Assembly: GCA_029582165.1 (NCBI GenBank)
Contig: CM055870.1
Span: 17,920,332-17,984,331, forward strand
Length of the DNA stretch: 64,000 bases
Source of the DNA: Portulaca oleracea
Lineage: Eukaryota; Streptophyta; Magnoliopsida; Caryophyllales; Portulacaceae
Direction of reading: 5' to 3'
A program made the position numbers and the translations under genes. Positions 10,601 to 61,818 of the stretch are shown in pieces. The first letter of the stretch is position 1, and every line of letters begins with the position of its first letter. The notes beneath the pieces are model-generated. The model made no database searches, was not told the origin of the DNA, and was given only the letters and a program-made list of their open reading frames with translations.

Positions 10601-11824
10601 TCCCAGCCCATTGAAAATCAGTCACATTAATCCAGAGTAACTTCAACAAGAGTAACTCATGGCATCTAGGTTTTGCCTTATTAAACAACTCATGAAGAAG
10701 TGAAACTTACTTGGCGAGCCTTGGCTCCAATTTTGTTCATGTATGCGGCAAAGATTCTGGTGGACATGCACTCTCCGAATGAAACAAGGTAGTCCTTGGT
10801 ACGTGGGGTTAGTTCTTTCATCATTGCAATCCCCTTGAGAAGCTGCTCTAACTCCTCCAAATGCGCTGCAAACATTTTGAAAACAAATTATTAGTTGAAT
10901 TACCGCTCAGGAACAGGACACTCGAACCATTCCCTGTTCTTTGGATTGGATAAAATGAGGTTTGGAATCAACTTTGGATAGATTCAATTGGATAAATTAT
11001 GATGCTTTTTTTGGGAATTGTAGTTTTAGAGAGGTTTTTTTGGGGGGAATTGCGTAAGGTTTGGATTGGAAAGAGTTATGAACGGGGCAAGCCCAATTGT
11101 AAAATTGACAGAGATGCTTACAGGAGATAACAGAAATGTCAATTCCCAGCTCGTCTACAGTCCTGGAAGAAATTATCAGTCAATTCATTCAGCAGCAGAA
11201 GGGGGGAAAGATAGAAGAAAGGAAAATGGCAATAGCAATACAAAAACAAAATTACCGGTAATGGAGATCCTTGATGAGGCTGAGCTCTGGGATATCAGAG
11301 GCCTTGGATACTCCACAGCTGACTGCCTTCTCTCCCGCCTGACCACAAGAAACCAAAACATTCTTGCGATCAACATGGTGATGAATGAATGCATACATGA
11401 AATGAAATGTAAAGGAGGTTATACATACGTTAAGAAGATTATTGGTGGTCTTTCCCATGGCAGAGAGGACAACAACAGGGCTCTCTTCAGGAAAGCTGAG
11501 GATGAGATCGGCGACTTCCCTCATCCTTTCAGCAGAAGCGACAGATGATCCGCCGAACTTCATAACCACCGTGAAGTTATCCCTGGGATTCGAATCGGCA
11601 GCATTGCCATGACTCCTCTCAATTTGCTCAACCTTCTGACATCTGACACCGGAATCTCTCCTCCTCGTCCTACAAGCAAGGGAGGAGCGGGACAGCCGAG
11701 AAATGGAGGAAAGGGAAGCGCCGAATTTGAGGGTGGATGCTGAAGAGGAGGGTGAAGAAAATTGGGGAGATGAGGAAGTAGTAGGCCTGGTGCGGACGCC
11801 ATGGAAATGCAAAGAAGCTGCCAT
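7675..11824 (-). CDS. AK: Aspartate kinase, monofunctional, plastid (13 exons, 567 aa)
   Basis: Catalyses ATP-dependent phosphorylation of aspartate, the first step to lysine, threonine, methionine and isoleucine, in the plastid. Exons (minus): 11824-11429, 11338-11256, 11162-11122, 10865-10711, 9722-9573, 9478-9383, 9262-9146, 8822-8703, 8630-8538, 8437-8315, 8189-8073, 7972-7910, 7824-7675. All introns read GT-AG and phases close to 567 aa, near the usual length of plant monofunctional enzymes. Residues 1-65 are rich in Ser and Arg, as in a plastid transit peptide. The kinase signature KFGGSS is at 89-94; TTDDF and TLGRGGSD mark the aspartate/ATP site in exons 5-6. The C-terminal third (about 390-560) is the ACT regulatory region, with [12 protein letters not shown]. 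No homoserine dehydrogenase domain follows, so this is the monofunctional, lysine-sensitive type. Exon 3 is only 41 nt. The exon 10 donor is ambiguous: GT after QAR, or a GC donor six bases earlier. Confidence 0.95.
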
Positions 11825-14997: not shown

Positions 14998-15259
14998 TGC
15001 ATAGCTTGGAATATGTTCGGTCTCATTTTGAGCCGAATTAAGACCGTAAATTGAGTATTTTTTTGTTGCGATTTCTTCACTTGATTGGAAAATTAGTGTG
15101 ATTTGCAGATCTTAATCCAACTTCATAGAGAAGTGAAAAAAAGTGGAGAAAAGATGAAAATTTAAGAGAGAATTGGAGAATTGAAAAGAAGATGAGAAGA
15201 AGAATTAAAGGAAGTGGCCCAATAGCGTGAGGTCCGGCCCAAGAGTGAGCAGAAGACAA

Positions 15260-15436
15260 AAACGCTGGCAGCGCCTAGATCAGAGACAAGAAATTTGGCG
15301 TTCATGCAAAACGTTGGCAGCGTTTTTAAAATGCTACCAGCGTTTAGTTCATATTTAAGCTTAACGTAGTAAAACGTTGCCAGCGTTTAGCTTCACAAAC
15401 CAAAAAAGGCGGAGAAACAAAACGCTAGCACCGTTT
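15260..15436 (+). repeat. U3 palindrome array, motif AAACGCTGGCAGCGTTT
   Basis: Five diverged copies of a 17-bp dyad at 15,260, 15,309, 15,329, 15,372 and 15,420. The arms AAACGCTG/CAGCGTTT are perfectly complementary in the inferred consensus. The last copy ends 14 bp before the TATA box. The matching LTR of element B keeps two nearly perfect adjacent copies (24,965-25,001). Confidence 0.9.
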
Positions 15437-15450
15437 ATCCCAGCATCCCT

Positions 15451-15459
15451 TATAAATAG
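15451..15459 (+). promoter_or_regulatory. TATA box of LTR A
   Basis: TATAAATAG lies mid-LTR, downstream of the palindrome array and about 765 bp before the LTR end. The same box is conserved in the B, C and D LTRs, so it is the likely element promoter. Confidence 0.7.
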
Positions 15460-16217
15460 AAGACTTCGCCGCAACAGTCGTGGGATTTCTATAGATATAT
15501 TATTTTTAGTTAGTTTTTAGGTTTTCTCGCTTTTAGTAGTATTGTTCTAGGGCTTAGTTTTCATTGTTTTGCTTTGCTTTTGCCTACCGTTATTCTTCGA
15601 TTATAATTCAGTCTTTCAATCTTTAATCCAATTCAAGTTTTCAATTCTTGTTCTTCTCGCTTTTTGTTTCTAGTCTTGTTACTTCGAATTATTAGTATTA
15701 GTTCACAACCAAATTCCACTTTTTAGTGAAAGAGGAGGATTAAGAGTTCACAAATTCTCCCTTCAGGTGAGGATTTGGGGGATTCTTAGTAATCCGAATC
15801 ACAACTTTTGTTTGTTCGGAAGAGTTCGTAATGTTAGCAAGGGAAGGTAGAGTGAAGAGAAGACTGTGTCTGTCGGTATACTCTACTCCCTTAATTTCAT
15901 CGGGTCTTTTAATTTAGTTCATATTTGCAATTTAGATTGTTATTTATTGCTTTCTTGATTATGCTTTTGATTTCTTGTTTAGTTTCTTGTTCTTGTTCTA
16001 GTAGTTAGGTTTTGTTTTCAATTTCTTGTTTTCTTGTTTCCTAGTTTAGTTTCTTTAGTTAAGTTTTGATTTCTTGTTCTTGTTTTTGATTCATAACTAA
16101 TTTAGTTTAAACCTGCAAATTAAAATCTTACCAAACCAATTTCCTAAAAACCAAACACACCATCGCTGTGGATACGACTACCCCTACTTTTTACCCCAAA
16201 TTTCTACGGCCGAACAA

Positions 16218-16235
16218 TGGCGCCGTTGCCGGGGA
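16218..16235 (+). other. Primer-binding site, complementary to tRNA-Asp
   Basis: TGGCGCCGTTGCCGGGGA starts one base after the LTR. It is complementary to the 3' end of plant tRNA-Asp(GUC), which ends …TCCCCGGCAACGGCGCCA as I recall it. The same site with one mismatch each is at 24,183-24,166 (B) and 60,498-60,481 (C). Confidence 0.85.
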
Positions 16236-18675: not shown

Positions 18676-18984
18676 TCATCTCAAGATGTTGGGCACCATG
18701 TCAGAACCATTCAATGCTCGCAGTAATAAGTCATGCATCCTAGCATCTATCTCAGAGTGGTGAACATAAGAGCACAATCTCAAAATTCCATCAGCAAACG
18801 TTAGTGCTCTCAACAGTTTATCAAAGGTCTTAGAAAAGTCATAGAATTAACAGACTACATGAATGTACACAACTTTCCTAGGCACCTTAAAAGGAGACAT
18901 GACAAATGATTCCTCCCATTGACTTGTAAATGGAGATTGGGTATGAAAATCAACGGAAGGGGGCAATACAATACACTCCTAAAC

Positions 18985-21900: not shown

Positions 21901-22755
21901 GCAATTACAATTTAATCTAATTTGTAAACAGTGAGGAGGGTAGAATGAATTTAATCAATTACAATGTACGTGTATGATGTATCCACTTTCTTGAAATTAG
22001 GCATCAACAAGGATAATCAAGCTCCCAAAATATCCACAAATTGACTGACCCATCAACTAATTCACAATCAAAACCCATAAATTTCACTCTTACTAACAGT
22101 AAATTAAACTGAAAAAGAGATTAATTAATCACTTAGTAGGGATGAGAGTAACTAATTAGGAGTAGCTTACCAAATAATGAAGAAATTCGATCGCCGTGCA
22201 ACAGTGGATTGTATATATAATTGATGAACTGTAGAGAATTTGGGGCGTGGGTCTGAATGTTTGATACTTTGAGTTTGAAAGTATGAAACTATTGAAAACG
22301 CATCACTGCATGAGGCTTTTAAAGATGGGTGATTGGGTGTGTGTAGTGTTAAAGAAATTTTCATTTTTTGGGTAATAAAGTAAGAAAGGAAGTTAATATA
22401 TTAATTTTGGCGTACAATCAGCAGAATATCAAAATTATATCATGATTATTAAAGGTCAAAATCAAAATTTATAGTTTACTTCCAAAAAAAATTGTATTTC
22501 CCTCCTAAAATTAAAAAAAACTTAAACGGTAAATGGTAAACGGTAAATAGGTTACTCATTAACCCATTTATTAAACGGGTTAAATGTGTCCTTTTTCGTG
22601 TTGACATTTTCAACCCAAACCTAACCCAATTATTTAAACGGGTCTATCGTGTCAACCCATTTAATTAAACGGGTTGAAAATCTGTACACAGACCCGTTTA
22701 ACTTCGTGTCGGTTTCGAGTCGGTAATCGTGTCGAGTCAGTTTTTCCCAGCTCTA
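18985..22755 (-). mobile_element. hAT-superfamily DNA transposon, 3.77 kb
   Basis: The termini are TAGAGCTGGGCAAT (left) and, read inward from the right, TAGAGCTGGGAAAA. An 8-bp target duplication TCCTAAAC is perfect on both sides (18,977-18,984 and 22,756-22,763). Subterminal regions are packed with AACGGGTT/AACCCATTTA motifs in both orientations (19,080-19,190 and 22,510-22,690), as expected for transposase-binding arrays. One minus-strand transposase gene lies inside. Inserted into the gag-like gene of element B. Confidence 0.95.
19672..21904 (-). pseudogene. hAT transposase, inactivated
   Basis: The first block (21,904-20,561, 447 residues) has a BED-type zinc finger (C114-x2-C117, H135, C139 after WKHYEFLEP), then FTTDCWTS and SLTVDNATSND, which carry two catalytic aspartates of the hAT fold. 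The second (20,369-20,106) is the middle domain with GVILDPRYKF. The third (19,998-19,672) is the C-terminal dimerisation region (PILSQMARDILAIPISTVASESAFS). A one-base deletion near 20,592 shifts the frame and a TGA at about 20,383, where TGG would be expected, stops it. The upstream start and any 5' exon are unclear. Confidence 0.9.
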
Positions 22756-24165
22756 TCCTAAACCTTCTCATGCACAGACTTGGATGCAAACAATGACTCA
22801 TAAAGCATATCACCATCAAAAATATCATTGTCACAAACCAAGTTCAAACACTTAGTATCAATCCCAAAGACTCAAGTTCATCATCATAAGATTTCACATT
22901 ATTTTCAATGGATTCACAAGAAAGGGTAGATAATGCCTAATTAATACAATCATCCTTAATGAAAGTGAATAATTCAGTATCAAGCACAGATTCAATTAAC
23001 AAGGATTTGATTTCACTCTCAACAAGATCAACATAGGTATCATGGCATTCATTGGATTCAACCTTCTCTTCACATAAAAGCATGGATAACGATGTGGACA
23101 ATGGTTCATCATCTAACATGTTTTCGTCAAGTTCTACATCATCACACACAAAATCATCCATTTTCTCATGCTCACTGGGTGCAGCTAGAGCTAAGGGTTT
23201 CCTAAGCTCGATACATGCAAAACTAGGCATGTTATAGTAGTCATCATCCTCATCATAATCATACACAGAAGAATCAACATGCATTTCAGGACTCAAAGAT
23301 GATGAATGATCTACTTCAACTATCGAATCAACCACTTGTGAAGAAGGATTTTCTACCCTAGGTCTAGTCTCATGTAAAAATTCACGCGTGTACTCGGTCA
23401 TTTTCGCACACATATCATTCATTTTCGCACACATGTTAGCTCGAAAATCATCTATTTCGGCTTGCAAGCAAGAATCAGAATCATGGCTCGACGAATCACA
23501 ATATGAGCACAAATGATGAGACTCAACAACATCACATTGGGGAAGATCAAGAGAATTTTCTACATAATCCTTATCATAAATATTGATCATCAAAATACAA
23601 GGGAATATCACATGATTGTTCAGTTAAGGTCTCCGAAAAAGTTCCCATATATCCTCCACCATTAGATTGATCATTCAGATTTTGGGGATGTTCATGATAT
23701 GGTATGGCTAAAGTCTCAGAGGGTGGTGCAAAATTTGAAATATGGGGGTCAAAGGGAGAATTTTGTTGTTCAGATTCATATGTAACCCTAGACAACCATT
23801 CAAGAAATTCCAAAACATCATCTTCTCCTAGGTTAGAAAACCCATAATATTCTAAGAGATTACGAGTTTCATAATTTAAACACAATACCCAAGACATCTA
23901 GTGTATCATGTGAGATACCATATGATACATATTGAGCAACATAATCCTGCAATCTAGCAAAATATCTCCAAAATATTTCTTGCTCAAATTGTGGAACCCT
24001 AACATCAATCATAACTCTCTTTCTTATTTTTTTATATTTTTATTATTTTTTATTTTTTTCGTTTTTCAATTATTTATGTTCACACTTTTTGTTTTTTGAA
24101 AGAACCTATAAAACAATAAACTATTTACACTCAAACCAATAACCTAATCTTACCAAATAACGTCA

Positions 24166-24183: not shown

Positions 24184-24184
24184 T

Positions 24185-25185
24185 TGTTCGATCATAGGAA
24201 TTTGGGGTAAAAAGTAGGGGTAGTCGTATCCACAGGGATGGTGTGTTAGGTTTTCAGGAAATTGGTTTGGTAAGGTTTCAATTTGCAGGAAGCAGTAAAT
24301 AGTTTAAACTAAACTAGTTATGAATTGAAAACAAGAACAAGAAATCAAAACTTAACTAAAGAAACTAAACTAGAAAACAAGAAATTGAAAACAAAACCTA
24401 ACTACTAGAACAAGAACAAGAAACTAAACAAGAAATCAAAAGCATAATCAAGAAAGCAATAAATAACAATCTAAATTGCAAATATGAACTAAATTAAAAG
24501 ACTCGATGAAATTAAGGGAGTAGAGTATACCGACAGTCTTCTCTTCACTCTACCTCCCCTTGCTAACATCACGAACTCTTCCGAACAAACAAAAGTTGTG
24601 ATTCGGATTACTAAGAATCCCCCAAATCCTCACCTGAAGGGGGAATTTGTGAACCCTTAATCCTCCTTTTTCACTAAAAAGTGGAATTTGGTTGTGAACT
24701 AATACTAATAATTCGAAGTAACAAGACTAGAAACAAAAAGCGAGAAGAACAAGAATTGAAAACTTGAATTGGATTAAAGATTGAAAGACTGAATTATAAT
24801 CGAAGAATAACGGTAGGCAAAAGCAAAGCAAAACAATGAAAACTAAACCCTAGAACAATACTACTAAAAGCGAGAAAACCTAAAAACTAACTAAAAATAA
24901 TATATCTATAAAAATCCCATGACTGTTGCGGCGAAGTCTTCTATTTATAAGGGATGCTGGGATAAAACGCTGCCAGCGTTTTATAAACGCTGCTAGCGTT
25001 TTGTTTCTCCGCCTTTTTTTGTTTGTGAAGCTAAACACTGGCAACCTTTTACTACATTAATCTTAAATATGAACTAAACGCAGATAGCGTTTTAAAAACT
25101 CTGCCAGCATTTTGCATGAACGCCAAATTTCTTGTCTCTGATCTAGGTGCTGCCATCGTTTTTTGAACGCCAAATTTCTTTTCTC
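24185..25185 (-). mobile_element. LTR of element B, outer end missing
   Basis: Minus-strand copy of LTR A: U5 motif (24,218-24,239), TATA box near 24,945 and palindrome array 24,965-25,170. It matches LTR A as far as the segment around 15,255. The first 240 bp of U3, including the TGTTCGG terminus, are absent, and plus-oriented LTR sequence begins instead. Confidence 0.8.
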
Positions 25186-25189
25186 TTCT

Positions 25190-25716
25190 TCAAGGTTCTT
25201 GTATTCTTTCGGTTATTTTTCTGTTTTTCTAGTATTAGTTCCACAAAAATCTAATTTTTAGTGAAGATTAGGATTAATGTTCCTCGAATTCTCCCTTCAG
25301 GTGGGGATTCGAACAGTCTTAGTAATCCAAATCACGCCTTTCTTGTTTGTTTGGGAGAAAGATTGATGATTCATGATTTCAAGATTCAAGATTAGTGTCA
25401 TGAATGCTAGGTATAATTTCGTTTCCTTAATTTCAGTAATTAGTTTAGTATTTACATTCATCGTTCTTGATTTTTTTTAAACTGCTTTCTTAGTTAGAAA
25501 TTTACTTTCTTGTTAAATTAGGTTTAGTTCATCTTTGAGTTCTTGTTTTCCTTAATTTTTATTGCTTTCAATCTTGATTAGTTTAGTTAGTTTAATTATT
25601 TACAGCTTCCTGCAATTTGAAACCCAAACCAAACCAATTTCCTGAAAACCTAACACACCATCCCTGTGGATACGACTACCCCTACTCTTTTTACCCCGAA
25701 TTACCACAACCGAACA
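25190..25716 (+). mobile_element. 3' part of a related LTR, plus orientation
   Basis: Aligns by eye with about 15,640-16,216 of LTR A (leader, CCCTTCAGGTGGGGATTC, U5 motif CATCCCTGTGGATACGAC, end CCGAACA) but is clearly more diverged than A is from B. It forms the right edge of the cluster; LINE coding sequence resumes at 25,717. Confidence 0.75.
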
Positions 25717-27281
25717 AGATAGCTTGAATGGCCGCCTTGATCAAAACCTCTCCCCCATCTTGATAATATTTTTTCCTTCCAACCCTTCAATTTCTTCCAG
25801 ACTCGGTCAATGATTGTCTTAAAAGTCACCCCTTTCGATCTTCCTATAACAGTGGGAAGCCCAAGATAGCGTTGCGAAGCCTCTATAACCTTAAAATTCA
25901 ACCTCCTTTGGAACATTTCCTGCATATTTTCGCTCACATTTCGGCTAAAAGAGACCTCTGATTTCTCAACATTGACCAGTTGCCCGGATAGTTTTTCATA
26001 CCGGTGGAAAATTTGCAGAATTTACGATGCTTCATTCTGGCTCGCTCTGGTGAATAATAAACTGTCATCCGCAAAGAAAATATGCGAAACAGTTGGCACT
26101 CCATTGCATACCCGCACTCCATGAATTTGCTTCTTCTTTACTGCGCCTACTATCAAACTAGAGAACACCTCCGTACACAAGATGAAAAGGTAGGGAGATA
26201 GACGGTCTCCCTGACTGAGCCCCTGTTATGGCTGAAACCATGATGTAGGTTGGCCATTGACGATAATTGCAAAAGATATCGTCGTCACGCATCGCATAAC
26301 AAGGTTCCTCCACTATTCATGGAAACCCAACCTCCGTAAAACTTTCTCTAGAAATACCCATTCAACCCGATCATAAGCTTTGCTCATATCCAATTTTAGC
26401 GCCATGTAATCCTTTCCTCCTCTTTTCTTCCGTTTCTTGAGGTAATCGAATTGCTCAAAAGTAACTAGTACATTGTCTGTTATCAACATGCCTGGTATAA
26501 AGGCACTTTGGGACTCATGGATTATCCAGGGGAGAATCTTCTTCAATTTGTTCACAACAGCCTTTGATATGATCGATTTTGTAGATGGTGTTGCATAAGC
26601 TTATTGGTCTGAAGTCCTTTGGCCCCGTCACTGCCTTGATTTTTGGTATTAGCATAATATAAGTCGAGTTGAACTCCTCTAGGTCGCCTTCGCCTCCATC
26701 ATTCGGGATATTCATCACAATTCTAGTAACGTCACTCCTGATTATATGCCAATATCTTTGAAAGAAAAGTGCGGGCATACCATCGGGTCGCGACGCCTTT
26801 GTAGGATGCATTTGTAATAGAGCATTATGTATCTCCTCACAGGTGAAAGGTCGCAGCAAATCTCTGTTTATCTCTTCAGTTATCACCAGTTGCAGTGCTT
26901 CATCAAACTCCTCCCAGCCTCCTGGATTGGATGATCTGAAGAGCTCTTCAAAATATTGCATTAATACCCTGTCAATCTCCTCAGACTCATACACCCATTC
27001 TCCATTATTATTTTGTAGCTGCATTATTTTAATTCCTTCTCTCTCTAATGGTTGCTTTTTGGTAAAAAAAACCTTGTGTTTCTATCTCCCTCAGTAATCC
27101 AAGACTGTCTACTGCGTTGTTGCCACATCATCTCTTCATGTTGCTCCAACTTGTCCAACTCTCTGTTTAGCTGTCCTATTTGATCAACTACCTCTGCATA
27201 TTGCTCAAACATTGTAGCTTGTCCATCTCCTCTTTCTTGTTTTTTTATATCCTCTCCGATGGACTTTTGTCCCCGAGCCAA
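25717..27281 (-). pseudogene. LINE reverse transcriptase, broken
   Basis: Successive minus frames: 27,281-27,045 (…SWITEGDRNTRFF), 27,024-26,515 ([54 protein letters not shown]), 26,555-26,313 ([17 protein letters not shown]…[14 protein letters not shown]) and the catalytic FADDSLLF near 26,070. The phases differ, so several frameshifts exist. The segment ends in LKGWKEKILSR…IQA at the LTR cluster and continues at 14,997. Confidence 0.9.
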
Positions 27282-27380
27282 ACCTCTTCTTTAACTCCTT
27301 GCAACAACTAAGTCCGTCCGCCATGCCTCAGGTATTTAGCCAGGCTTCGTCCACCCTTTTTCACTGCCTTCCTCTACCGT

Positions 27381-28157
27381 TCATGCTTTCTCGAATCTGC
27401 AAGGTCTACGCTTGCTCCTGGAAGTTTTATATCTGGCAGGTTTTGCGTGCCGACACTCTATGAATATTGGCAGATGATTGGATTTTCGTTTCGTCAGATG
27501 AGATACCAATGCCCATGGTAATATAGTCTTCCACCCGTCATTCGCTAAAAATCTGTCCAATCTCTCTTGTATATTCATCTCTTCCCCTTGGTTATTTGAC
27601 CATGTGTAGATATGTCCGATATATCCAAGGTCCTGCAGCCCACACCTATTTATCGCTTCCTGAAAATTGTTCATTAACCTCCTGTCTGCTCCATTGCCCC
27701 CTTTTTTCTCCCCCTCCTCCAAAATGGCGTTGAAGTCACCAAAACATAACCAAAGGAGTGCGTTTGTGTTTAGCATATCCAACAATTCCCAAGTTTTCTC
27801 CTTGTCTCTGTCCTCCGGCCATCCATATATTCTTGTCGCTCTCCATACCGGACTCTCGTCTTGGGCAATATGTTCCATGTCTATATGGTTTTGGGACATG
27901 GACTTGAGGGATAGGTTGAGATGGGATTTCCATAACATTGCCAAACCTCCATTCCTTCGTCGCCCTGTACCCATGCAATCAACAATCACCCCGTTCTTGT
28001 ACCTTAGCTTGTGTTTTATTTTTTCCATCACAATAGTCTTCAGCTTCGTTTCCGATAAGAAAACGATATCGAGATCTTTGTTGTTCACTATGCCTTTTAA
28101 GGTATTTACAGCCTCCGGGTTCCCAAGCCCTCGGCAGTTGTAGGCTAGGGCATTCAT
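27381..28157 (-). pseudogene. LINE AP-type endonuclease (start of ORF2)
   Basis: Starts MNALAYNCRGLGNPEAV with N8, E36 in LSETK and GDFNAIL (140-146), the order of an APE-type LINE endonuclease that nicks target DNA. The terminal signature normally read S-D-H is S226-N227-H228, so one catalytic aspartate is changed to Asn. The ORF2 start overlaps the ORF1 stop by four bases (ATGA, 28,157-28,154). The frame is lost after 27,381. Confidence 0.9.
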
Positions 28158-29409
28158 GGCGCTTGGCGGGGCTGCGCGCCAGCCTCCACCACATCTACTT
28201 TCTCACTATCCACTCCCACCACTACAACACTTCTTCGTAGTTTACTGCTCGGCTCCTCTCGTATTTCAACTTCTTCAATCTCACGTTTCCTCATTCTAAC
28301 TTCTACAACCCGACTATGATTTCCAGCTTTTGAAGGTAAGCATGGAATTCTTTTCCATTTCCCCACCACTGTGCCCTGCGGGATTTCTTCCTCAGTAACA
28401 GTCTGATGCACGTCCACCCTGTGATTTTTAATTGATATCTTCTGTGCATTCCGCTCTTCTTCAACACTTTTGTCCCCCGTACCCCGTCCTTCATCATTTA
28501 CGTTTATTTTGATGAAGCTTACTGCCATCTCCTCAATTTGTTCCTTTGTCTTTTCTTTCTCAACCGCCTTTGATTTGAAGGTTAGCTTTCTGGCACTATT
28601 CCCCCCTTCATCACTTTCTTGATATTCCCCCCTTCCTCCTCTCCTACTACTTTTCCATGGGGATGCCCTAATCCATTCTCCGTAGTTGTAGACAACTCCT
28701 TCCTCATCATTGTCTTCCTTTTCCAAGCAATCTCTCTCTATATGGCCTACTCTTCCACAAAAATAGCATATGTTCGGCAATTCCTCATATTTCACCATCA
28801 GCGTAGTTATTGATCCATCCTTTCGCTGCACATCCACTTCATCCGGGAAAGGCTCTCTCAGGTTCATCAGAGCTTTGAATCTGAGAGTCTTTGTCCAACC
28901 TTTGTTGCACTCCTCATCTATCTTCACCAACACCCCAATAGAATTTGCTAGGGCTGTAATATTCGAGTTCTTTTTTCCATCAAAAGGCGGATCGTAAATA
29001 TGCACCCAGAATGGGGCATGATCAAGCATCTCCTCCATCTCCGATGGTCGTAGTCCTTTTACCACACATTTAAGGACCACCGTGCTTTTATCGAATAGCC
29101 ATGGCTCCTCCTCCTCCACTCGCTCAACATCCTTCTAGTGATAGAACTGAAATAAGAATAGGTTTGTCCTATTTCCTTTGATTCCATTCCATGTTTTGGG
29201 CTGCATATTTTCTCCATTGTTTGCATGAACGCAAAAGCATTAAACTTTCTCGTCGTCCACAATTTCCCCACTAAGTAGAGATCCAGTGCGGATGGTTCAT
29301 CCCCTTAACCTTCGTCGTCATCCCACCTTACCAACATCTTCTCCTTTTTTTCCTTTCTTTCGCTCACTCCCTTGCTTTTCGATCCACTTCCTTCCCTTGT
29401 GGAAGCCAT
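28154..29409 (-). pseudogene. LINE ORF1, gag-like with zinc knuckle
   Basis: The likely start is at 29,409 (MASTREGSGSKSKG). A TAA follows about 33 codons on (near 29,308), and a frameshift near 29,120 joins to the long frame EEEEPWLFDKSTVVLKCV. The frame has the DUF4283-type core, FDGKKNSNITALANSIG, and a CX2CX4HX4C knuckle CYFCGRVGHIERDC, then a basic Ser/Arg-rich tail. It ends in QPRQAP overlapping ORF2. Confidence 0.85.
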
Positions 29410-50210: not shown

Positions 50211-52498
50211 GTGAGTCTCTTCTTCTATTTAAGGAAGGATTTGGTTATGGCAGTGGCATCCAAATGCATCCCTCCTCACAAACGGAAAAAATCACAAAAA
50301 AAGGGAGCTTCTCAATCGAGCGTGATATCCTTTCTTTTCCCTTTTAACAATCCTAATGTTCCAGAAACAAATGACTACCCTTTCATCAGGAAAGAACCAA
50401 ATGTGGTCATTTCTGAAGCTTCACCTGAAGCTTGCCAAGAATGGAATGGAATCTTTCATTCTTTGGTTTAGTTGCTGATATGACACTTTGGAATGCACCA
50501 ACTCTAGAGGATGAAATCAACCGTCACTTTATTGCTCATGAGGTGCTTCACTACATCCGGAGGAAGAAACAACGGAAGAAGATGGGAGCTATCAAGGTGG
50601 ATATGCACAAGGCGTATGATTGAGTCAGATGGGACTTCGACAAGGGGACCCCCTTTCCCCCTATTTGTTTATCCTGTGTCTGAATGTTCTTGTCTCCAAC
50701 CTCAAGATCACTGCAAGTAGGCAACAAATTGCTGGCATAAAGGTAGCTAAAGGAAGTCCAGAGGTAACACATCTCTTCTTTGTTGATGACTCTCTATTCT
50801 TCACAGAGTTATCCACGTTGCCTTGTCTCAACCTCAAAAATCTCATTGATGAGTTCTGCTTGATCTCGGGGCAAGTGGTTAATATCAATAAATCCCATTT
50901 GATGGTCTCACCAAATGTATCTGAGGAGGAAAAAGATGGCTTCAAAATCCTGTTTGGGTACCAAGTGGAAGACTCCTTTCCCAAATACCTGGGGATTCCA
51001 CCTGTAATCCAAAGGAACCGAACCACCCAATTGGGATTCATGATAGATGCAGTGGAGAAGCAATTGCAAGGTTGGAAGACCTCTCTCCTTTCTCCTCCTG
51101 GCTCCTGGAAGATTAGTTCTTATTAATGCGATCTTATTGGCTCTTCATAGACACATCCTATTAGTGTATAAGATTCCAAAATCTCTCGCTAATAGGGTGG
51201 ATGCATTAATGATCAACTTCTTATGGTGGACCAGTGGCAACCACAATGGCAAACGTTGGGTGAATAAGGAAGTCCTCATGTCGCCAAAGAGCAAAGGAGG
51301 TCTGGGCTTGAGGAGGACACCCTGGGTGAATGATGCTCTTCTTGTGAAACAAGCCTAGCGCCTGGAGCAAAATAAGGATGGGCTGCCAGCAAGAATCTAC
51401 AAAGCCAGATACAAGCAAACTTCACCATTGGCACTTTCCTCATTTGAACCGAAACGAGGATCTCCTTGCTGGAACAGTCTTTGTAGAGCGGCAAAAAATT
51501 TAAGGGGTGGGATCAAAGTTAAAGTCAACTCTGGGAAGCAATGTCGCATTCTCACATACAGTTGGGAGGGTTCGGAACCCTTGCAATTGTAGGAGGACCA
51601 TAATAGAGCTACGTGGAACAATAGAACAGTTAGTGATCTGAGAAGAACCATGGAAGGAGATTGGAATTGTCGGCTAATTCGTCAACTTTTTATCGATAAG
51701 TGAGCTAAGGCAATTTTAGCCTACCCAGTATGAGATTCAGCTGAAGATGACTCCATCTATTGGGGCTTCACACAAAATGGGAACTGTTCGGTTGTAATTT
51801 TTGTGGTTTTATGAGTTAGGGTTGTCGGTCCACAGGGATGGGTGTTTAGGCTTGATTAAGGGTAATCGGTTCGTGTAAATGAGTTTTTCTCAAGGCGAAA
51901 AGCAATAAATTATGTAAATAAAAGCAATAAACTAACCTAGACATAATAATAATTAAGAAAGCAATAAAAGATGAAAGCAATTAAAAGGCATGAATGAAGA
52001 CAATGAATGAACAATGAAATTGGGAATGAGAAATTATACCTTTGATGACTAATCTTCAATAAACCTTCAATCTACACTTGAATTTCCCCCGAACAAGCAA
52101 GAAATTGTGGTTTGGATTACCAAGAATCCCCCAAATTCTCACTAGTAAGTAGAATTGGAGTTCCTTGACCCTCCTCCCCACTAAAAATGGAGTTGATTGT
52201 GGCTAACACTATAAAGCTTGGAAAACAAGTCAACAATGGAGATTAGAGAGAGAAAGAAAGAAGAGAGAAGAGAGAGAAAGCTTTGTAAAACTTCAATGGA
52301 AACTTGCTTGAATTGAGAAAGCTTGAGAAAGTTTGAATACAAATGCTAGAAATCAATGAAAGCTTGAAGAACAATGAAGAACAATTGAAAACTTGAAGAA
52401 CAATTAAGAGAGATTAAAGCAAATAAAGGAAAGCAATTAAATCTAATTCTACTCCTAAACTACCTAGGCTAATTGATTATTTAGATTAATACAAGTGG

Positions 52499-52508
52499 GT
52501 ATTTATAG
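52499..52508 (-). promoter_or_regulatory. TATA box of solo LTR D
   Basis: CTATAAATAC on the minus strand, downstream of the palindrome array, in the same position as in the other LTRs. Confidence 0.65.
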
Positions 52509-52573
52509 AAGAAGGAAAAATACAACCCCAAAACCCTAGAACAATCGCAGCACGCGCGTCTGCAGACAGTGTG

Positions 52574-52678
52574 GCTTGGGCGAGCAGAAATTTGGCTCGG
52601 GCGAGCAAGCGTTCTGGCTGGTGTTTTTGTTGCTCCAGAACCCTTGCTCGGGCGAGCAGAAATTTGGCTCGGGCGAGC
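52574..52678 (-). repeat. U3 palindrome array of LTR D, motif GCTCGGGCGAGC
   Basis: Four copies (52,574, 52,595, 52,646 and 52,667; the first has CTTGG) with arms GCTCG/CGAGC. They come as two pairs, each spaced 21 bp and joined by AGAAATTTG. The array is 66-180 bp upstream of the TATA box. Confidence 0.95.
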
Positions 52679-54242
52679 AAGCGTTAGGCGATTTCCCTGC
52701 CGACTTCAAACACGCATAACTTCTTCATCCGAACTCCGTTTTAGGCCCGTAAGATATCGATGGAAAGCTCTCGGTGTGTACTTTAAGCTCCCAAAATTTC
52801 AGAGCCATCGGAGTTGTAACGAAGGAGTTATGACCCAAAGGGTGAAGGCAAACGTATTTCAAACCTTTAAGTTTGTACCGTTCCCCTGTTTGCGCCAATC
52901 TTGATATGGAATTTCCGACTTCGGTTTCGCCTCGGCTCTCGGCTTGGGTTGACTTGGTTTGACTCGGATCTCGGCTCGGGTTGACTTGGTTTGACTCGTG
53001 AAATAGCTCGGAATTCCCTAAAAACCTTCAATTAAGCCCAAACTTCTTCTAACTCCTTATTTTCCTACAAAACACTAAATCATTATATCTAATATATAAA
53101 TAGGGGTTAAAACAAGCAAATATACCCCTATAAAAGAGAAGAAATTCGGCTCGAAACAAGGCCGAACAGGAACTACTCAGCAAAATCAGGTTATAGATAT
53201 CTTTGGGAGAAGGCAAATGAAGGTGGAACATGGGGAAGGAAAGTGTCACTTCAAGAGGAATACAACTGCCCAACCTAAATGGAAAAAATACATGTCTGGA
53301 ACGTTGTCCAAAATGGACTACGTACGGTGGATAAAAGGAGGAAGTGGGACAATAGCGCGTATCCGCTTTGTGGTCTCTATGGCCAGGCGCTAGAATCAGC
53401 ACAACATATTTTTAAGGATTGTGCATGGACTACAGTGGTTTGGTTTGCGTTAAATTTGGGTATTATCAACCAGCACATGTTCCTCTGCCGATCAATACAT
53501 GGATCCATAATTGGTTGACTCTTATGTTCAAAAAGCGTGAGGAGGGGGACAGAATGGCTCAAGAGTTTCTGGTCGTCCTGTGGACATTTGGCTGAGTACG
53601 AACAAGAAGATTTTCAATAACTCACTCCCACCAATTCGAGAAGTCCTTAGTTGGGTTAAACAAGACCTGTTTGGACTAATGGAGTGCAACGGAAATCGCA
53701 AGAGGAAAGAACAACAGCTGACAAGGGCGCCACAAACGATAGAAGCAGGCGAGAAGGGAACCTTCAAGTGGAGATTAGGAGAAGGCAGTACACTGCAAGG
53801 AAGTTATATCAGTGATGAAGCATGGGATAGGAATTCGTTACAGGGAGGCATTGGTTGGGTTCTGAAAATGGGGAATACTAGAATTGGGCAGGGGGCGGAA
53901 TGTAGTTTGGCTCTATCTATTTTTCAAACAGAGGTACAAGCAATTGAGGTTGTTCTGAAGGATGCTATCCGGAGAGGATTGAGAAGGATTTTGATTGAAA
54001 CCGATGTTGCTCTAGTAATCACAGCCTTCCGACGGCCAAACGCGTAATCCAATGTGTGGCAATCTGCTGACAACATGCAGAAACCTTTTTTTACATTTTG
54101 ATCTTTGTATTATCAATAAGGTAAGCAGGGATACCGTTAGGGAAGCACACACTCAGGCCCAACGGGCTAAGAGGGGAAACCTTCCTTAAATGGGTAGGTT
54201 TATGTATTCGCTTGACTGTCTTACCTTAACAAAAAAAAAAAA

Positions 54243-55675: not shown

Positions 55676-55680
55676 GTCCT

Positions 55681-56185
55681 TGTTCGGTTCGTAGTTTTGT
55701 GGTTTTTATAAGTTAGGGTTGTCGGTCCACAAGGATGGGGTGTTAGCCTAATGAGGAAATTGGTTTGCGTAGAGGTTTTCAGATGCGAAAAACAGTAAAT
55801 AATGAAAGTAATTAAACTAATATTAGCAATGATTCAAACAATCAACACTAAAGAAAGCATGAATTACAACATGAACAAACACTAAACAACAAGAAAGAAG
55901 AAAGCAATTAGAAATCAATAAAATGAGAAAACAATAAAACTAATGATGAAATTGAGAACAAGAATTATACCTTCAAAGCATTAAATCTTCGCTACTTCTT
56001 CATCTCGAATCCTTCACCTCGAATTTTCCCCCGAACAAACAAGAAAATTGTGATTTGGATTACTAAGAATCCCCAAATTCTCACTTGAAGAAGAATTTGT
56101 GACTCTTAATCCTCCTCCTCACTAAAAGTTGGATTGGTGGTGAACTAGCACTAGAAAACTTTGAATCAAATCAACAATGAAAACT

Positions 56186-56217
<32 letters not shown>

Positions 56218-57063
56218 AAAACTTGGAAATTGCTTGAATTGAAATTGCTTGAAAGAGAGTTGATTACAAATGCAAGAAAACTTGAAGAACAATTAAAGCT
56301 TAATGAAAATGCAATAAAACCTAATTCTACTCTAATCCTAATCTAATTCTAAGTCTAGATGCTAAAAACTAGATTCTGTAATGCTGAAATGTTTAGGGTA
56401 TTTATAAAAGGAATGGAAACAAGCCCAAAACCCTACAACTAAAGCCCAGCCGCTGCTTTAATTTCCGCACAGCGGATCATCGTCGCGGGTGCGACGAAAC
56501 AGGTCGCGAGTGCGACCTCATTCTACCCCTTTTCCTTCATCATTCGCTCACAGCCACCGCGAGTGTGACAGAGTTTGTCGCGGGTGTGACACCATTCTGT
56601 CTCGGGTGTTACAGAGTTTGTCTCGGGTGTGACACCATTCTGTCTCGGGTGTGACACCATTATGTCTCGGGTGTGACAGAGTTTGTCTCGGGTGTGACAC
56701 CATTCTGTCTCGGGTGTGACAGAGTTTGTCTCAAGTGTGACACCATTATGCCTCCTTCCCCTCTACTTCCTTCCTTGGGCTGTAGTGTCCGCTACAAGGG
56801 ATTTAGGGGGTGTTGCGCCCCTGTTTTACACCAAAAATGGGGAAAGAGTTCCCGGGTCGGTTCCGCTTTCTTTCTCGGCTCGACTTGGCTCAGGAAATAG
56901 CTCGGGATTCCCTAAAAAGCCTCTATTAAGCTCATTTTTCCTTCTAACTCTTTATTTTCCTACAAAAACACAAATTCATCATAGCTACTATGTAATCAAG
57001 GGGCTAAAACAAGCAAATCACCCTATAAATGATAACAAATTCGGCTCGAAACGAGACCGAACA
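55681..57063 (-). repeat. 3' LTR of element C (1,383 bp)
   Basis: Begins TGTTCGGTCTCG (57,063) and ends CCGAACA (55,681). Contains the U5 motif (near 55,722-55,737), a (CT)n tract (56,187-56,216), a TATA box TTATAAATACC (near 56,408-56,398) and a nine-unit tandem array in U3. Confidence 0.95.
56482..56755 (-). repeat. U3 array of the 3' LTR of C: GTCGCGGGTGCGAC palindromes and nine 21-22-bp units
   Basis: Two dyads with arms GTCGC/GCGAC (56,482-56,495 and 56,503-56,516) are followed from about 56,556 by nine units of the form GTCTCGGGTGTGACACCATTC or …ACAGAGTTT. The units keep the GTC…GAC ends but have lost the inner CpGs. The 5' LTR has only six units (61,368-61,498). Confidence 0.95.
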
Positions 57064-58818
57064 ACACTCCCACATAAGGGTTTGCTCACCCCGAGCAAAC
57101 TAAAACAAAGAATAAAAAGAAAAAGAAACTAACTACCCTAACAAACTTTCGCAGGAATCGCGGATGCATTTAGCACATGCATCAAGCCCCTTAAACCCCT
57201 TGGCAGCCCAAGTGGACGAGGAAGGTCTCGTGAGGGTTTATAAACGCTCTACCCACAAAAACAAAGGAAAAGAAAAGAAGAAAGAAAAAAAGAAAAAGAA
57301 AAAGAAAAGAGAAGAGAAGAGAAGAGAAGAAAGAAGAGAAAGAAAAACTCAAGACCAAAGAAAAAAATTGAGGAGAAACACTTTGTGAGATAAAAGAGGC
57401 GAAATCAAGAAAAGGAGGTCGACACCAAGGAAATTCACACACACAGTCGCGAAGCTAACTACTCAAACAATGCATTCACTCAACTAGGAACAGTTAATAA
57501 GCACTATCAAGGTAACTAGCAAGAATGTTACTCGACTTCACATTTTTCACCTCACTCATGCATAGCTTGATGGGTTTCTCGTGCTCAAGTGCAGTGTTTC
57601 AAGCTTGTTTTTGTTCAAGTCAAGTTTCAATGGGATAGAAATAACTACTCAAACACCCATGCTCAATATTTAATTAATTAATGGCGGTTCATCTCCCTAT
57701 TTGGTGTCGCCCTTGGCTTGGTGAGGGTCGCAGGTTACATAGAGATCGGTTCTACACTTATTGCATTCAACGCTTTGCTTGATGTCAGTTTGTTCGAGAA
57801 TTGCGTGGCCCTAAAAGGGGTCTACTCTCCCAACATAGATCATTTCCATTCACATATGAGGTGCTTAAGGGGCGTAAACGCCGCACCACTCACACGATCT
57901 ATGTAGGTGAACCAACATTTTCACTTAATTCAACTATTTTTGGTGTTAGTCTTTTCTGGAATTGCACGGGCCATAAATGGGGTCTACCCTCCCAACATGG
58001 GCTACTCCATATGCAAACGAAGTGCTTAAGGGGTAAGAGCGTTGTACCACTCATACCAACCCGTGTAGGTGTACTAACTTTCAATTACTTTCCATTGCTT
58101 TTCAACTTTTCTTACTTAGAGCATGGATATTCAAAAAGCGAAAACTTCCCTCCTAAACCAAAACCATCACATTAACTAGCCTAGAAGTGAATTTCTAAGG
58201 ATACCACACGGTTGCAAATACGGGTGAGGTTATTATGTTTAAGAAAAACAACAATCAAGATCGAAGCCTATCAAGCATTCACTAACTATTCCTAACTAAG
58301 CAATTGCACTATTCTCGCAATCAACGACACAACCATATATACAAACTACCCTTAGCCGATAAAAATTTTAAAAGTTTCGCTTAAATTCATGATACTAAAG
58401 ATGTTTCTCTTCCAAAAATTGTACATGCACTTGTGCCACCCCACTCCCACACAAAAACTCAACAATGTCCTCATTGTGACTAAGGTGACACCACACGCAA
58501 AATAAAACAAAGATCACACAAAAGAAAAACTCACAAAAGAGAAAAAAAAAATACAAGTCGGGTCGGCATGCATGCCACCCCTACTCCCATACAAAAAGGC
58601 CAACAATGTCCTCATTGGAATAGAAATGAAGGTAAGCAAGCACACGAAAGAAAAGAAAAAGAAACACACAAAAAGAAAACAAAAGAAGAAAAGAAAGCCA
58701 ACTTACTAACTATATTTACAAGAGAAGATAACAATATTACCTGGTTGGGTTCTGAGCATACCCAAACAATGAGCTCTCAGAAAAATAAAACCATCTATGG
58801 AGCATCAGCCACTCCATC
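57064..58818 (-). mobile_element. Long 3' non-coding region of element C
   Basis: No pol frame. It includes a purine tract on the given strand (57,262-57,350, AAAAGAAAAG/GAAGAGAAGA), two diverged copies of a block with GTCTAC(T/C)CTCCCAACAT and AGGTGCTTAAGGGG-like sequence (57,800-57,880 and 57,970-58,040), and the conserved block CACTTGTGCCACCCCACTC near 58,430. The region next to the 3' LTR, read on the minus strand, ends GTGGGAGTGT and may be the polypurine tract. Confidence 0.7.
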
Positions 58819-59245
58819 TCACCTCAAGAAGCTAGTAACCATGTCAGAACCATTCAACGCCCGTAGTAACAAATCATGCATTCTTGCATGCATCTCCAAG
58901 TGGTGGACATAAGAGCACAATCTCAATAGTACATCAATAAACGTTAGTGCTATCAACAATTTATCAAAAGCCTTAGAAAAATCAGTGAAATGACGGACTG
59001 CAGGAAGATACATGACTTTCCTAGGCACCTTAAAAGGAGACATGACAAATGATTCCTCCCATTGACTTGTAAATGGAAATTGAGTATGCAAATCAACGGA
59101 AGGGGCCAATACAACACATTCCTTAACCTTCTCATGCACATACTTGGATGCAAACAACAACTCATAAACCATATCACCATAAAAAAAATATCATTGTCAC
59201 AAACTAAGTTCAAACACTTAGGATCAATCCCCAAAGACTCAAGTC
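58819..59245 (-). pseudogene. Frameshifted C-terminal part of the gag-like protein of element C
   Basis: Frames 59,234-58,953 and 59,172-58,819 continue the protein after the 382-aa frame (GIDPKCLNLVCDNDIF, VHEKVKECVVLAPSVD, SQWEESFVMSPFKVPRK, LLRLCSYVHHLEMHARMHDLLLRALNGSDM). Element A has the same text, so the ancestral protein was roughly 510 residues and C has at least two frameshifts here. Confidence 0.8.
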
Positions 59246-60358
59246 ATCATCACAAGATTTCACATTAATGGATTCGCATGAAAGGGTAGCTAATGCCTCA
59301 TTAATACAATGATCCTTAATGAAAGTGAATAAATCAGTATCAAGCACACATTCAATCACAAAGGATTCAATTTCATTCTCAACAAGATCATGTTCAATTG
59401 CATCACAAGCACCACAACATTCATTAGACTCAACCTTTTCTTCACACAAAGGCATGGACAATGGTATGGACAATGGTTCATCATCTAACATGTTTTCATC
59501 AAGTTCTACACCATCACACACAAGATCATCATGTTTCACATGCTCACTAGATGTATCTAGAGCTAAGGAATTGCTAAGTCTGATGCATGCAAAACTCGGT
59601 CTATTATAGTAGTCATCATCCTCATCATAATCATACAAAGAAGAACCATTATGCATTTCATGACTCAAAGACGATGACTGTTCTACTTCAACTATCGACT
59701 CAACCACTGGTGAAGAAGAAGTTTCTACCCTAGAACTAGTCTCATGTAAAAATTCACGCATGCATTCAGTCATTTTCACACAGAATTCATCCACTTTAGG
59801 TTGAAAACAAGAATCAGAATCATGGTATGGAGAATCACAATGTGAGCACAAAGGATGAGACTCAACAACATCACATGGGGGAAGATCATAAGAGTTTTCT
59901 ACATAATCCCGACCATAAGATTGGTCATCAAAATACAAGGGATAATCACATGATGGTTCAGTTAAGATCTCCGAAAAAATTCCCATATATTCCCCACCAC
60001 TAGATTGATTATTCAGATTTTGGGGGTACTCATGATACGGTATGGCTAAAGTCTCAGAAGGTGGTGCATAATAAGAAGGTTGGACACTAGGAATAACATT
60101 TCTTTGTTCAAGCTCATAAGTATCCCAAGACAACCATTCAAGAAATTCCCAAGCAACATCTTCTCCTAAATTAGAAAACCCGTAAAAATTGAAGAGATTT
60201 CGAGTTTCATAATTTATACCCTCATAAACAATTCCCAATATATCCAATGTATCATAAAAGATACCATACAATTCACATTGAGCACGATAATCATGTAATC
60301 TTGCAAAGTATCTCCAAAATACTTCATGCTCAAATTGGAGAAATCGGGGACTAGCCAC
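59210..60358 (-). CDS. Gag-like protein of element C (382 aa)
   Basis: The longest intact frame of the family, starting about 120 bp after the primer-binding site. Residues 9-60 (FEHEVFWRYFARLHDYRAQC…LGIVYEGI) resemble the FW-x2-Y…L-x3-C…YEG core of plant Ty3-type gag proteins; this is a pattern match by eye. A zinc knuckle CX2CX4HX4C lies at C171, C174, H179 and C184, followed by an acidic stretch (YDYDEDDDYY, about 241-250). No protease or pol domain. The frame is probably truncated at its C-terminus by frameshifts. A role in packaging element RNA is inferred from the family. Confidence 0.7.
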   Translation of the reverse strand: MASPRFLQFEHEVFWRYFARLHDYRAQCELYGIFYDTLDILGIVYEGINYETRNLFNFYGFSNLGEDVAWEFLEWLSWDTYELEQRNVIPSVQPSYYAPPSETLAIPYHEYPQNLNNQSSGGEYMGIFSEILTEPSCDYPLYFDDQSYGRDYVENSYDLPPCDVVESHPLCSHCDSPYHDSDSCFQPKVDEFCVKMTECMREFLHETSSRVETSSSPVVESIVEVEQSSSLSHEMHNGSSLYDYDEDDDYYNRPSFACIRLSNSLALDTSSEHVKHDDLVCDGVELDENMLDDEPLSIPLSMPLCEEKVESNECCGACDAIEHDLVENEIESFVIECVLDTDLFTFIKDHCINEALATLSCESINVKSCDDDLSLWGLILSV

Positions 60359-60480
60359 AACTCTTTTTTTTTCTTTCTCTTTTTTTTTTCAATTTTTGTG
60401 ACTACATTTTCTTGGAAGAATCTAGAAAACTATAAACTATTTACACACAAACCAATAACCTAATCTACCAAATAACGCCA

Positions 60481-60498
60481 TCCCCGACAACGGCGCCA
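60481..60498 (-). other. Primer-binding site of element C
   Basis: Minus strand TGGCGCCGTTGTCGGGGA, one mismatch to the element A site, adjacent to the LTR end at 60,500. Confidence 0.85.
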
Positions 60499-60499
60499 T

Positions 60500-61004
60500 T
60501 GTTCGGTTCGTAGTTTTGTGGTTTTTAGAAGTTAGGGTTGTCGGTCCACAAGGATGGGGTGTTAGGCTAATGAGGAAATTGGTTTGCGTAGAGGTTTTCA
60601 GATGCGGAAAATAGTAAATAATGAAAGCAATTAAACTAATATTAGCAATGATTCAAACAATCAACATTAAAGAAAGCATGAATTACCACATGAACTAACA
60701 CTAATCAACAAGAAAGAAGAAAGCAATTAGAAATCAATAAAATGAGAAAACAATAAAACTAATGACGAAATTGAGAACAAGAATTATACCTTCAAAGCAT
60801 TAAATCTTCGCTACTTCTTCATCTCGAACCCTTCACCTCAAATTTTTCCCCGAACAAACAAGAAAATTGTGATTTGGATTACTAAAAATCCCCAAATCCT
60901 CACTTGAAGTAGAATTTGTGACTCTTAATCCTCCTCCTCACTAAAAGTTGGATTGGTGGTGAACTAGCACTAGAAAGCTTTGAATCAAATCAACAATGAA
61001 AACT

Positions 61005-61042
<38 letters not shown>

Positions 61043-61813
61043 AAAACTTGGAAATTGCTTGAAAGAGAGTTGATTACAAGTGCAAGAAAACTTGAAGAAC
61101 AATTAAAGCTTAATGAAAATGCAATAAAACCTAATTCTACTCTAATCCTAATCTAATTTTAAGTCTAGATGCTAAAAACTAGATTCTCTAATGCTGAAAT
61201 GTTTGGGGTATTTATAGAAGGAATGGAAACAAGCTCAAAACCCTACAATCAAAGCCCAGCGGCTGCTTTAATTTCCGCACAGTGGATCATCGTCGCAGGT
61301 GCGACGAAACAGGTCGCGGGTGTGATCTCATTCTGCCCCTTTTCCTCCGTCATTCGCTCACAGCCGTCGCGGGTGTGATAGAGTTGGCCGCAGGTGTGAC
61401 ACCATTCTTTCTCGGGTGTGATAGAGTTTGTCTCGGGTGTGACAGAGTTTATCTCGGGTCTGACACCATTCTGTCTCGGGTGTGACACCATTCTGCCTCC
61501 TTCCCCTCTTGTTCCTTCCTTGGGCTGTAGCGCCCACTACAAGGGATGTAGCGGGTGCTACGCCCCTGTTTTGCACCACAAATGGGGAAAGAGTTCTCGT
61601 GTCAGTTCCACTTTCTTTCTCGGCTCGGCTTGGCTCGGGAAATAGCTCGGGATTCCCTAAAAAGCCTCGATTAAGCTCATTTTTCCTTCTAACTCTTTAT
61701 TTTCCTACAAAAACACAAATTCATCATATCATAGCTACTATGTAATCAAGGGGCTAAAGCAAGCAAATCACTCTATAAATGATAACAAATTCGGCTCGAA
61801 ATGAGACCAAACA
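60500..61813 (-). repeat. 5' LTR of element C (1,314 bp)
   Basis: Begins TGTTTGGTCTCA (61,813; one base changed from the family TGTTCGG) and ends CCGAACA. Contains (CT)n (61,007-61,040), TATA box TCTATAAATACC (near 61,216-61,205), and the U3 array with a GTCGCAGGTGCGAC dyad near 61,293 and six 21-22-bp units to about 61,498. Confidence 0.95.
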
Positions 61814-61818
61814 GTCCT

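What the first reader, a model, noticed from the sequence alone, without database searches (positions are those of the whole stretch)
56482..56755. LTR family with a swappable, CpG-rich palindrome array at one fixed U3 position
In A/B, C and D the LTR ends, TATA box, U5 motif and primer site are shared, but the segment just upstream of TATA differs completely. Each is a small tandem array of dyad-symmetric words: AAACGCTGGCAGCGTTT (A/B), GCTCGGGCGAGC (D), GTCGCGGGTGCGAC (C). The architecture is kept while the sequence is replaced. Possible meanings: binding sites for a dimeric host factor that differ between subfamilies, replication-generated hairpins, or arrays that attract or evade methylation. 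I know of no description of this exact pattern.
Basis: partly seen in the sequence, partly recalled or inferred. Interest (0 to 1): 0.75.

Follow-up and report, generated by a model that had tools for sequence, protein, structure and literature searches.

The report
Palindrome arrays in plant retrotransposon promoters
A family of plant jumping genes carries small arrays of mirror-symmetric DNA words just before its promoter, and the words differ between branches of the family; this closely resembles control-region arrays already described in other plant retrotransposons, here in what looks like a different lineage.

Summary
The window looks like plant DNA holding one LTR family (TGTTCGG..CCGAACA ends, tRNA-Asp-type primer site): C is a complete copy without visible pol, D a solo LTR, A and B truncated, E a remnant. 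Dyad words do lie upstream of the TATA box in A/B, C and D, but the description needs correction. In the cited LTR only two of 13 words keep all six outer pairs; the amplified 21-22-bp units carry a broken pair. A/B words are mostly dispersed. C and D are not fully unrelated: words lie at similar positions, show weak residual homology and differ partly by paired changes. Unseeded tests of dyad excess are mixed: significant for B and C in one, for A/B only in another, never for D. Best reading: promoter-proximal U3 enhancer arrays of symmetric protein-binding sites that turn over fast. The architecture is published for Sireviruses (palindromic RM boxes upstream of TATA) and U3 replacement between subfamilies for Tnt1; by its primer site this family is neither. 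New variant of a known kind. Function is inferred, not shown.

The parts
55681..61813 (-). Element C, complete LTR retrotransposon without visible pol; 5-bp target duplication GTCCT at 55676-55680 and 61814-61818
55681..57063 (-). C 3' LTR
60500..61813 (-). C 5' LTR; LTR-LTR K2P distance 0.064
56481..56496 (-). C3 TATA-proximal dyad word CGTCGCACCCGCGACG
56502..56517 (-). C3 second dyad word GGTCGCACTCGCGACC, 21 bp from the first
56555..56742 (-). C3 array of nine degenerate units, 21-22 bp apart
56781..56817 (-). C3 upstream dyad pair, decayed (words at 56781-56796 and 56802-56817)
56399..56406 (-). TATAAATA of the C3 LTR
61291..61327 (-). C5 TATA-proximal dyad pair (61291-61306, 61312-61327)
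61365..61487 (-). C5 array of six degenerate units
61526..61562 (-). C5 upstream dyad pair TGTAGTGGGCGCTACA and CGTAGCACCCGCTACA, 21 bp apart
61209..61216 (-). TATAAATA of the C5 LTR
60481..60498 (-). C primer-binding site of tRNA-Asp type (TGGCGCCGTTGTCGGGGA)
   Evidence: the tRNA-Asp assignment is recalled, supported in kind
59210..60358 (-). C internal ORF, 382 aa, gag-like with a C-X2-C-X4-H-X4-C stretch; no Pfam match
51785..53168 (-). D, solo LTR; target duplication GGAAC at 51780-51784 and 53169-53173
52572..52680 (-). D dyad words: 52572-52587, 52593-52608, 52644-52659, 52665-52680
52500..52507 (-). TATAAATA of D
15014..16216 (+). A 5' LTR
15259..15437 (+). A dyad words, five copies of AAAACGCTGGCAGCGTTTA type
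15451..15458 (+). TATAAATA of A
16218..16235 (+). A primer-binding site TGGCGCCGTTGCCGGGGA
24185..25163 (-). B LTR, truncated in U3 (the scripts used 24184-25167)
24964..25162 (-). B dyad words, six copies; the TATA-proximal one sits in an 11-bp perfect arm
24942..24949 (-). TATAAATA of B
25168..25716 (+). E, LTR remnant with the shared U5 block and LTR end but no U3 array; its left edge is approximate

Best explanation
The segment is the promoter-proximal enhancer of the LTR: a set of 14-19-bp, roughly two-fold-symmetric DNA words, 4 to 13 per LTR, standing from about 13 to about 410 bp upstream of the TATA box. Each word is most likely a binding site for a host factor that binds as a dimer and recruits transcription when the element is induced. 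Words multiply by duplication and slippage and are lost by decay, so subfamilies end up with different words. C and D share word positions (pairs 21 bp apart, next pair 51-53 bp away) and seem to have diverged from one ancestral array by changes that often hit both arms of the dyad; A/B has another array. Shown: positions, symmetry of the words, spacing, paired changes, weak C/D homology. Inferred: protein binding, dimerisation, enhancer action, induction.
For: Words sit upstream of the TATA box in all five LTRs that keep this region (A, B, C5, C3, D). Each word set is more palindromic than its permuted columns (p 0.001 or less; words picked with dyad-shaped seeds). Paired change in C+D words: covariation score 0.397 against 0.142 in shuffles (0 of 500) and at most 0.120 in slid controls; 15 cells changed on both sides against 5.0 (0 of 500). 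C words alone: score 0.317 against 0.163 (0 of 500), cells 8 against 3.1 (1 of 500). C/D word zone z 3.0. In C/D words sense-strand mismatches are 7 G.T against 15 A.C, which does not look like sense-RNA constraint. Published analogues: Sirevirus RM boxes, where symmetry is called frequent in regulatory sequences, box I of Tnt1 included; [quoted passage not shown] a statement that TE cis-regulatory regions are often arrays of sometimes palindromic repeats.
Against: No factor is identified and there are no expression or binding data. The amplified C unit has a broken pair, so amplification did not need perfect symmetry. The number of pairs changed on both sides is not above shuffles, either in C+D (5 against 3.5, reached by 81 of 500) or in C alone (2 against 2.2, 395 of 500); further pair types are reached by 28 and 203 of 500. 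A/B words show no paired change (0 of 8 pairs; 79.5% paired against 80.0% in shuffles) and no 10.5-bp phase (0.29 and 0.07). Unseeded tests are never significant for D and mixed for A and C. Between the two C LTRs the array diverges faster (K 0.111) than the flanks (0.057 and 0.050), so it is not conserved after insertion, alignment of repeats permitting. The common register of C and D words was my choice, and related copies can inflate covariation. Only three array types from one window.
Confidence: 0.57

Rival explanations
1. Neutral tandem-repeat turnover. U3 is weakly constrained, short repeats expand by slippage or template switching, and the dyads are partly chance, picked out by eye.
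For: C amplified units are imperfect dyads; the inverted/direct ratio of C (0.10-0.12) and of the D array alone (0.22) is within the range of ordinary arrays; unseeded unit tests give C p 0.070-0.169 and D p 0.19; the array differs in length between the two C LTRs and diverges about twice as fast as its flanks; counts of pairs changed on both sides do not exceed shuffles.
Against: Dispersed A/B words with unrelated spacers and p 0.002 for symmetry; covariation scores above all shuffles and slid controls; same place in the LTR in three array types.
Confidence: 0.23
2. RNA hairpins. The 3' LTR U3 is transcribed, so the words fold into stem-loops in the element RNA, acting in RNA function or serving as sources of silencing small RNA.
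For: Strong local folding in array windows (120 nt, 60 shuffles each), minimum sense z: A -5.3, B -4.1, C5 -7.3, D -6.4, each below the other windows of its LTR (-4.2, -3.5, -3.8, -2.3); long stems in the folds of the D array and the C5 upstream pair; maize Sirevirus palindromes are reported as small-RNA mapping hot spots.
Against: C3 array windows are not the lowest in their LTR (-2.3 against -3.0); G.T mismatches are not favoured over A.C in the sense strand (7 against 15 in C/D, 6 against 5 in A/B); strong folding is expected from any DNA dyad.
Confidence: 0.12
3. CpG module: the words matter as CpG-dense DNA that attracts or evades methylation.
For: CpG observed/expected 0.82-1.18 in the arrays against 0.57-0.88 in the rest.
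Against: CG transition fraction between the two C LTRs is 0.17 in the array, 0.17 overall, 0.24 before and 0.12 after it, so neither shielded nor singled out; the A and B arrays hold only 14 and 9 CpG.
Confidence: 0.06

Closest known systems
Sirevirus RM boxes (Ty1/copia; Bousios et al. 2010, PMC2829016; section 9 read in full, passages of other sections)
   Same: Repeated palindromic words mostly in the upper half of the LTR, upstream of a TATA box, forming CpG islands; word sequence differs between elements while dyad symmetry is kept.
   Different: Sireviruses are Ty1/copia; 12 of the 13 listed words have a CGG-CCG core, absent here; at least eight copies per element there (linker copies counted), 4-13 per LTR here; the primer site here is of tRNA-Asp type.
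Maize Sirevirus LTR palindromes (Bousios et al. 2016; not held, known only from passages in PMC10760457 and PMC5311732)
   Same: Palindrome clusters in the regulatory region of LTRs, of high sequence variability.
   Different: Linked there to small-RNA mapping; no such data here.
Tnt1 superfamily U3 subfamilies (PMC1838419 and PMC3316501, passages read)
   Same: Subfamilies keep most of the element and differ in U3; U3 BII boxes bind host factors; box I is called symmetric in PMC2829016.
   Different: Ty1/copia; the passages read do not describe replacement of palindromes at one place.
Del LTR CpG islands (PMC4029996; two sections read in full, abstract and passages of others)
   Same: Length- and sequence-variable CpG-rich segment in the 5' part of LTRs.
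   Different: Chromovirus lineage, eudicot copies without islands; no palindromic words described in the parts read.
Athila-lineage elements Diaspora and Calypso (PMC1142308, passages read)
   Different: Diaspora has protease, reverse transcriptase and integrase domains; element C shows no pol ORF. Its primer site starts 5 bp past the LTR, here 1 bp. No U3 palindromes in the passages read.

Membership tests
Sirevirus with RM boxes | Palindromic repeated words in the LTR upstream of TATA | tested here: met
   (many copies decayed), against the description
Sirevirus with RM boxes | CGG-CCG core in the word (12 of 13 listed elements) | tested here: not met
   word lists; table and text
Sirevirus with RM boxes | At least eight copies of the word per element | tested here: inconclusive
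   C3 13, C5 10, but A 5, B 6 (truncated), D 4 per LTR
Sirevirus with RM boxes | tRNA-Met primer site (that Sireviruses have it is recalled; one search reports it in all Ty1/copia lineages that use complete tRNAs) | tested here: not met
   primer sites read TGGCGCCGTTG..GGGGA; TGGTATCAGAGC is absent from both strands of the window
Sirevirus with RM boxes | Ty1/copia reverse transcriptase | not testable with these tools
   element C has no other sense-strand ORF of 120 aa or more between its LTRs
Athila/Tat (OTA) Ty3/gypsy | tRNA-Asp primer site (used by Diaspora and Calypso; not exclusive to them) | tested here: met
   (C and B each one base different from A); the tRNA sequence itself is recalled
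Athila/Tat (OTA) Ty3/gypsy | Reverse transcriptase, RNase H and integrase phylogeny | not testable with these tools
   no pol found in the copies at hand
Non-autonomous gag-only LTR element (TR-GAG type, definition recalled) | LTRs, primer site and gag-like ORF, no pol | tested here: inconclusive
   ORF of 382 aa with a CCHC-like stretch, but no Pfam match at E 0.1
Tnt1-type U3 subfamily structure | Subfamilies share the rest of the LTR and differ in U3 | tested here: met
   A also differs from C beyond the first 75 bp of U3

The most novel reading that the evidence does not exclude
Two-fold symmetry itself, not the word, is what selection keeps: in a Ty3-type lineage apart from the Sireviruses, U3 words have been rewritten by paired changes in both arms at fixed positions (C against D) and replaced outright (A/B), a convergent promoter architecture that escapes recognition by the host while keeping its dimer-binding geometry.
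Probability: 0.22. Interest if true: 0.6.

Novelty: new variant of a known kind. Interest (0 to 1): 0.38.

Why it matters
If the pattern holds genome-wide, palindromic promoter arrays are not a peculiarity of Sireviruses (called a Sirevirus-specific feature against the other elements compared there) but a recurrent design of plant LTRs. The C/D pair would then give a direct way to ask whether dyad symmetry is selected as such, by counting paired changes at matching positions across subfamilies.

Tried and rejected
Host-genome census: the same genome search was sent 13 times and never answered. Relatives elsewhere: the gag-like ORF gave no related locus in viral contigs (one pattern match, not confirmed) and one protein, P0001, 75% identical over 23% of the query, from a 1341-base JGI contig. 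LTR or primer-site patterns gave 0 matches in viral contigs and 0 in prokaryote genome contigs; the C3 LTR found nothing in plasmids. An A/B word of 17 bases hit two viral contigs once each; I took these as chance and did not follow them.

Considered and rejected: helical phasing as a general rule (coherence 0.88 in C5 without its upstream pair and 0.90 in D, but 0.57 in C3, 0.29 in A, 0.07 in B); methylation protection of the array; auxin-response dimer sites for the C unit (TGTCTC half-sites are present, but the spacing looked wrong; recalled knowledge, not tested).

Corrections made on re-reading: the header says 1000 shuffles, 300 were run; the duplication check printed an empty list because of a mis-set slice, and the 8-bp duplication is read from the flanks it printed. 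For the C/D word alignment 20 of 27 word copies were given, the seven dropped being identical duplicates. After adding the faster divergence of the array and the pair counts that do not exceed shuffles, I lowered the best explanation from 0.60 to 0.57 and the novel case from 0.25 to 0.22, and raised the neutral rival from 0.20 to 0.23.

Full report
What is there. The window looks like plant nuclear DNA (inference), 37.4% GC. It holds five copies of one LTR family. C (55681-61813, minus) is complete: LTRs of 1383 and 1314 bp and the target duplication GTCCT on both sides. D (51785-53168) is a solo LTR with GGAAC on both sides. A (plus) and B (minus) are truncated copies, 95% identical over 2.4 kb. 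E is a U5-bearing remnant. The primer site next to the 5' LTR is TGGCGCCGTTGCCGGGGA in A, with one base different in C and in B. I recall this as the complement of the tRNA-Asp 3' end; [quoted passage not shown] C has a 382-aa gag-like ORF without Pfam match and no other sense-strand ORF of 120 aa or more between its LTRs, so it looks non-autonomous; shorter pol remnants were not looked for. The two C LTRs differ by K2P 0.064.

The words. In element sense, A and B carry AAAACGCTGGCAGCGTTTA-type words (5 and 6), C carries CGTCGCACCCGCGACG-type words (13 in C3, 10 in C5), D carries TTGCTCGCCCGAGCAA-type words (4). All lie upstream of TATAAATA. In C3 two of 13 words, the TATA-proximal ones, keep six of six outer pairs; the amplified units read TGTCACACCCGAGACA and have an A.G mismatch. 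Against the proximal word it has A-T in place of C-G at one pair, both arms changed.

Is it more than chance? Results differ by test. Perfect-arm counts against 300 shuffles: C5 and C3 p 0.007 (arms of 5 or more), B 0.060, A 0.19, D 0.21; longest arm B p 0.003, C5 0.040, the others not significant; other segments of these LTRs p 0.15 or more. Circular repeat units: A/B p 0.002, C 0.070-0.169, D 0.19; 15 other tandem arrays of the window all above 0.14. Inverted/direct word ratio: A 0.71, B 0.59, D 0.40 (array alone 0.22), C 0.10-0.12, against 16 control arrays at 0-0.38 apart from one of 3.0 with a single direct pair. Column permutation, with words picked by dyad-shaped seeds: p 0.0007, 0.0003, 0.001 for A/B, C, D. 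I conclude that the dyads are real in A/B, likely in C and D, and decayed in many copies.

Kept while replaced? C against D: the first 190 bp align at z 19.9, the middle of U3 not at all (z -0.3), the word zone -195..-70 weakly (z 3.0, p 0.008; the proximal pair alone z 2.7, p 0.014), the stretch to TATA well (z 7.9). Word starts relative to TATA are -90, -111, -164, -185 in C and -80, -101, -152, -173 in D. With C and D words in one register (my choice), the covariation score is 0.397 against 0.142 shuffled (0 of 500) and at most 0.120 when partners are slid; 5 of 6 pairs show a change on both sides, which 81 of 500 shuffles reach. C alone: score 0.317 against 0.163 (0 of 500), 2 of 6 pairs, which 395 of 500 shuffles reach. 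The tool warns that relatedness can inflate the score. A/B words: no paired change; the A array has no homology to C or D arrays (z -1.2 and -1.7; B not tested). So 'replaced' fits A/B against C/D, while C and D look like one array that has diverged.

Mechanism. DNA dyads serving as dimer sites in a U3 enhancer fit best. For RNA hairpins: array windows fold strongly in A, B, C5 and D (minimum sense z -4.1 to -7.3) but not in C3, and sense-strand wobble is not favoured. For methylation: CG transition fraction between the C LTRs is 0.17 in the array and 0.17 overall. For neutral turnover: the C array diverges at K 0.111 against 0.057 and 0.050 in its flanks, though repeat alignment may inflate this.

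Known relatives. Bousios et al. 2010 describe palindromic repeated words upstream of TATA in Sireviruses, forming CpG islands and differing between elements. Tnt1 and Retrolyc1 subfamilies differ by U3, and Tnt1 BII boxes bind defence-induced factors. Del LTRs have plastic CpG islands. This family fails the Sirevirus core and primer-site features. A search for papers with Athila, palindrom, LTR and retrotransposon listed 20 of 24; from titles and abstract openings none describes U3 palindrome arrays in that lineage, but only four of them were opened, in passages or single sections (PMC6911290, PMC11963269, PMC2829016, PMC10794571).

Limits. One window, three array types, no host-genome census, no expression, methylation or small-RNA data, and no named host species.

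Noticed in passing
18985-22755: hAT-like transposon (by BED zinc-finger ORF 20561-21904, PF02892, and an 8-bp duplication TCCTAAAC at 18977-18984 and 22756-22763) inserted in element B.
   Followed up: partly
52715-52832: The D LTR holds a segment with inverted-repeat ends (CATAACTTC..AACTCCG / CGGAGTT..GGAGTTATG) next to the word array (read); I recall similar stretches in other plant LTRs.
   Followed up: no
25118-25182: The B/E junction lies at a repeated stretch GAACGCCAAATTTCTT (read), suggesting a recombination event in the U3 array.
   Followed up: no
26515-29119: LINE-like fragments on the minus strand: endonuclease (PF03372) and zinc-knuckle (PF14392) ORFs; a third ORF (26515-27024) has no Pfam match.
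   Followed up: partly
50620-51126 and 53580-54047: Reverse transcriptase (PF00078) and reverse transcriptase-like/RNase H (PF13456) fragments on either side of the solo LTR D.
   Followed up: partly
11252-11824: ORF with the start of an amino-acid kinase domain (PF00696), probably an aspartokinase exon.
   Followed up: no
1485-1817: Tandem array of an 83-bp unit, about three to four copies.
   Followed up: no
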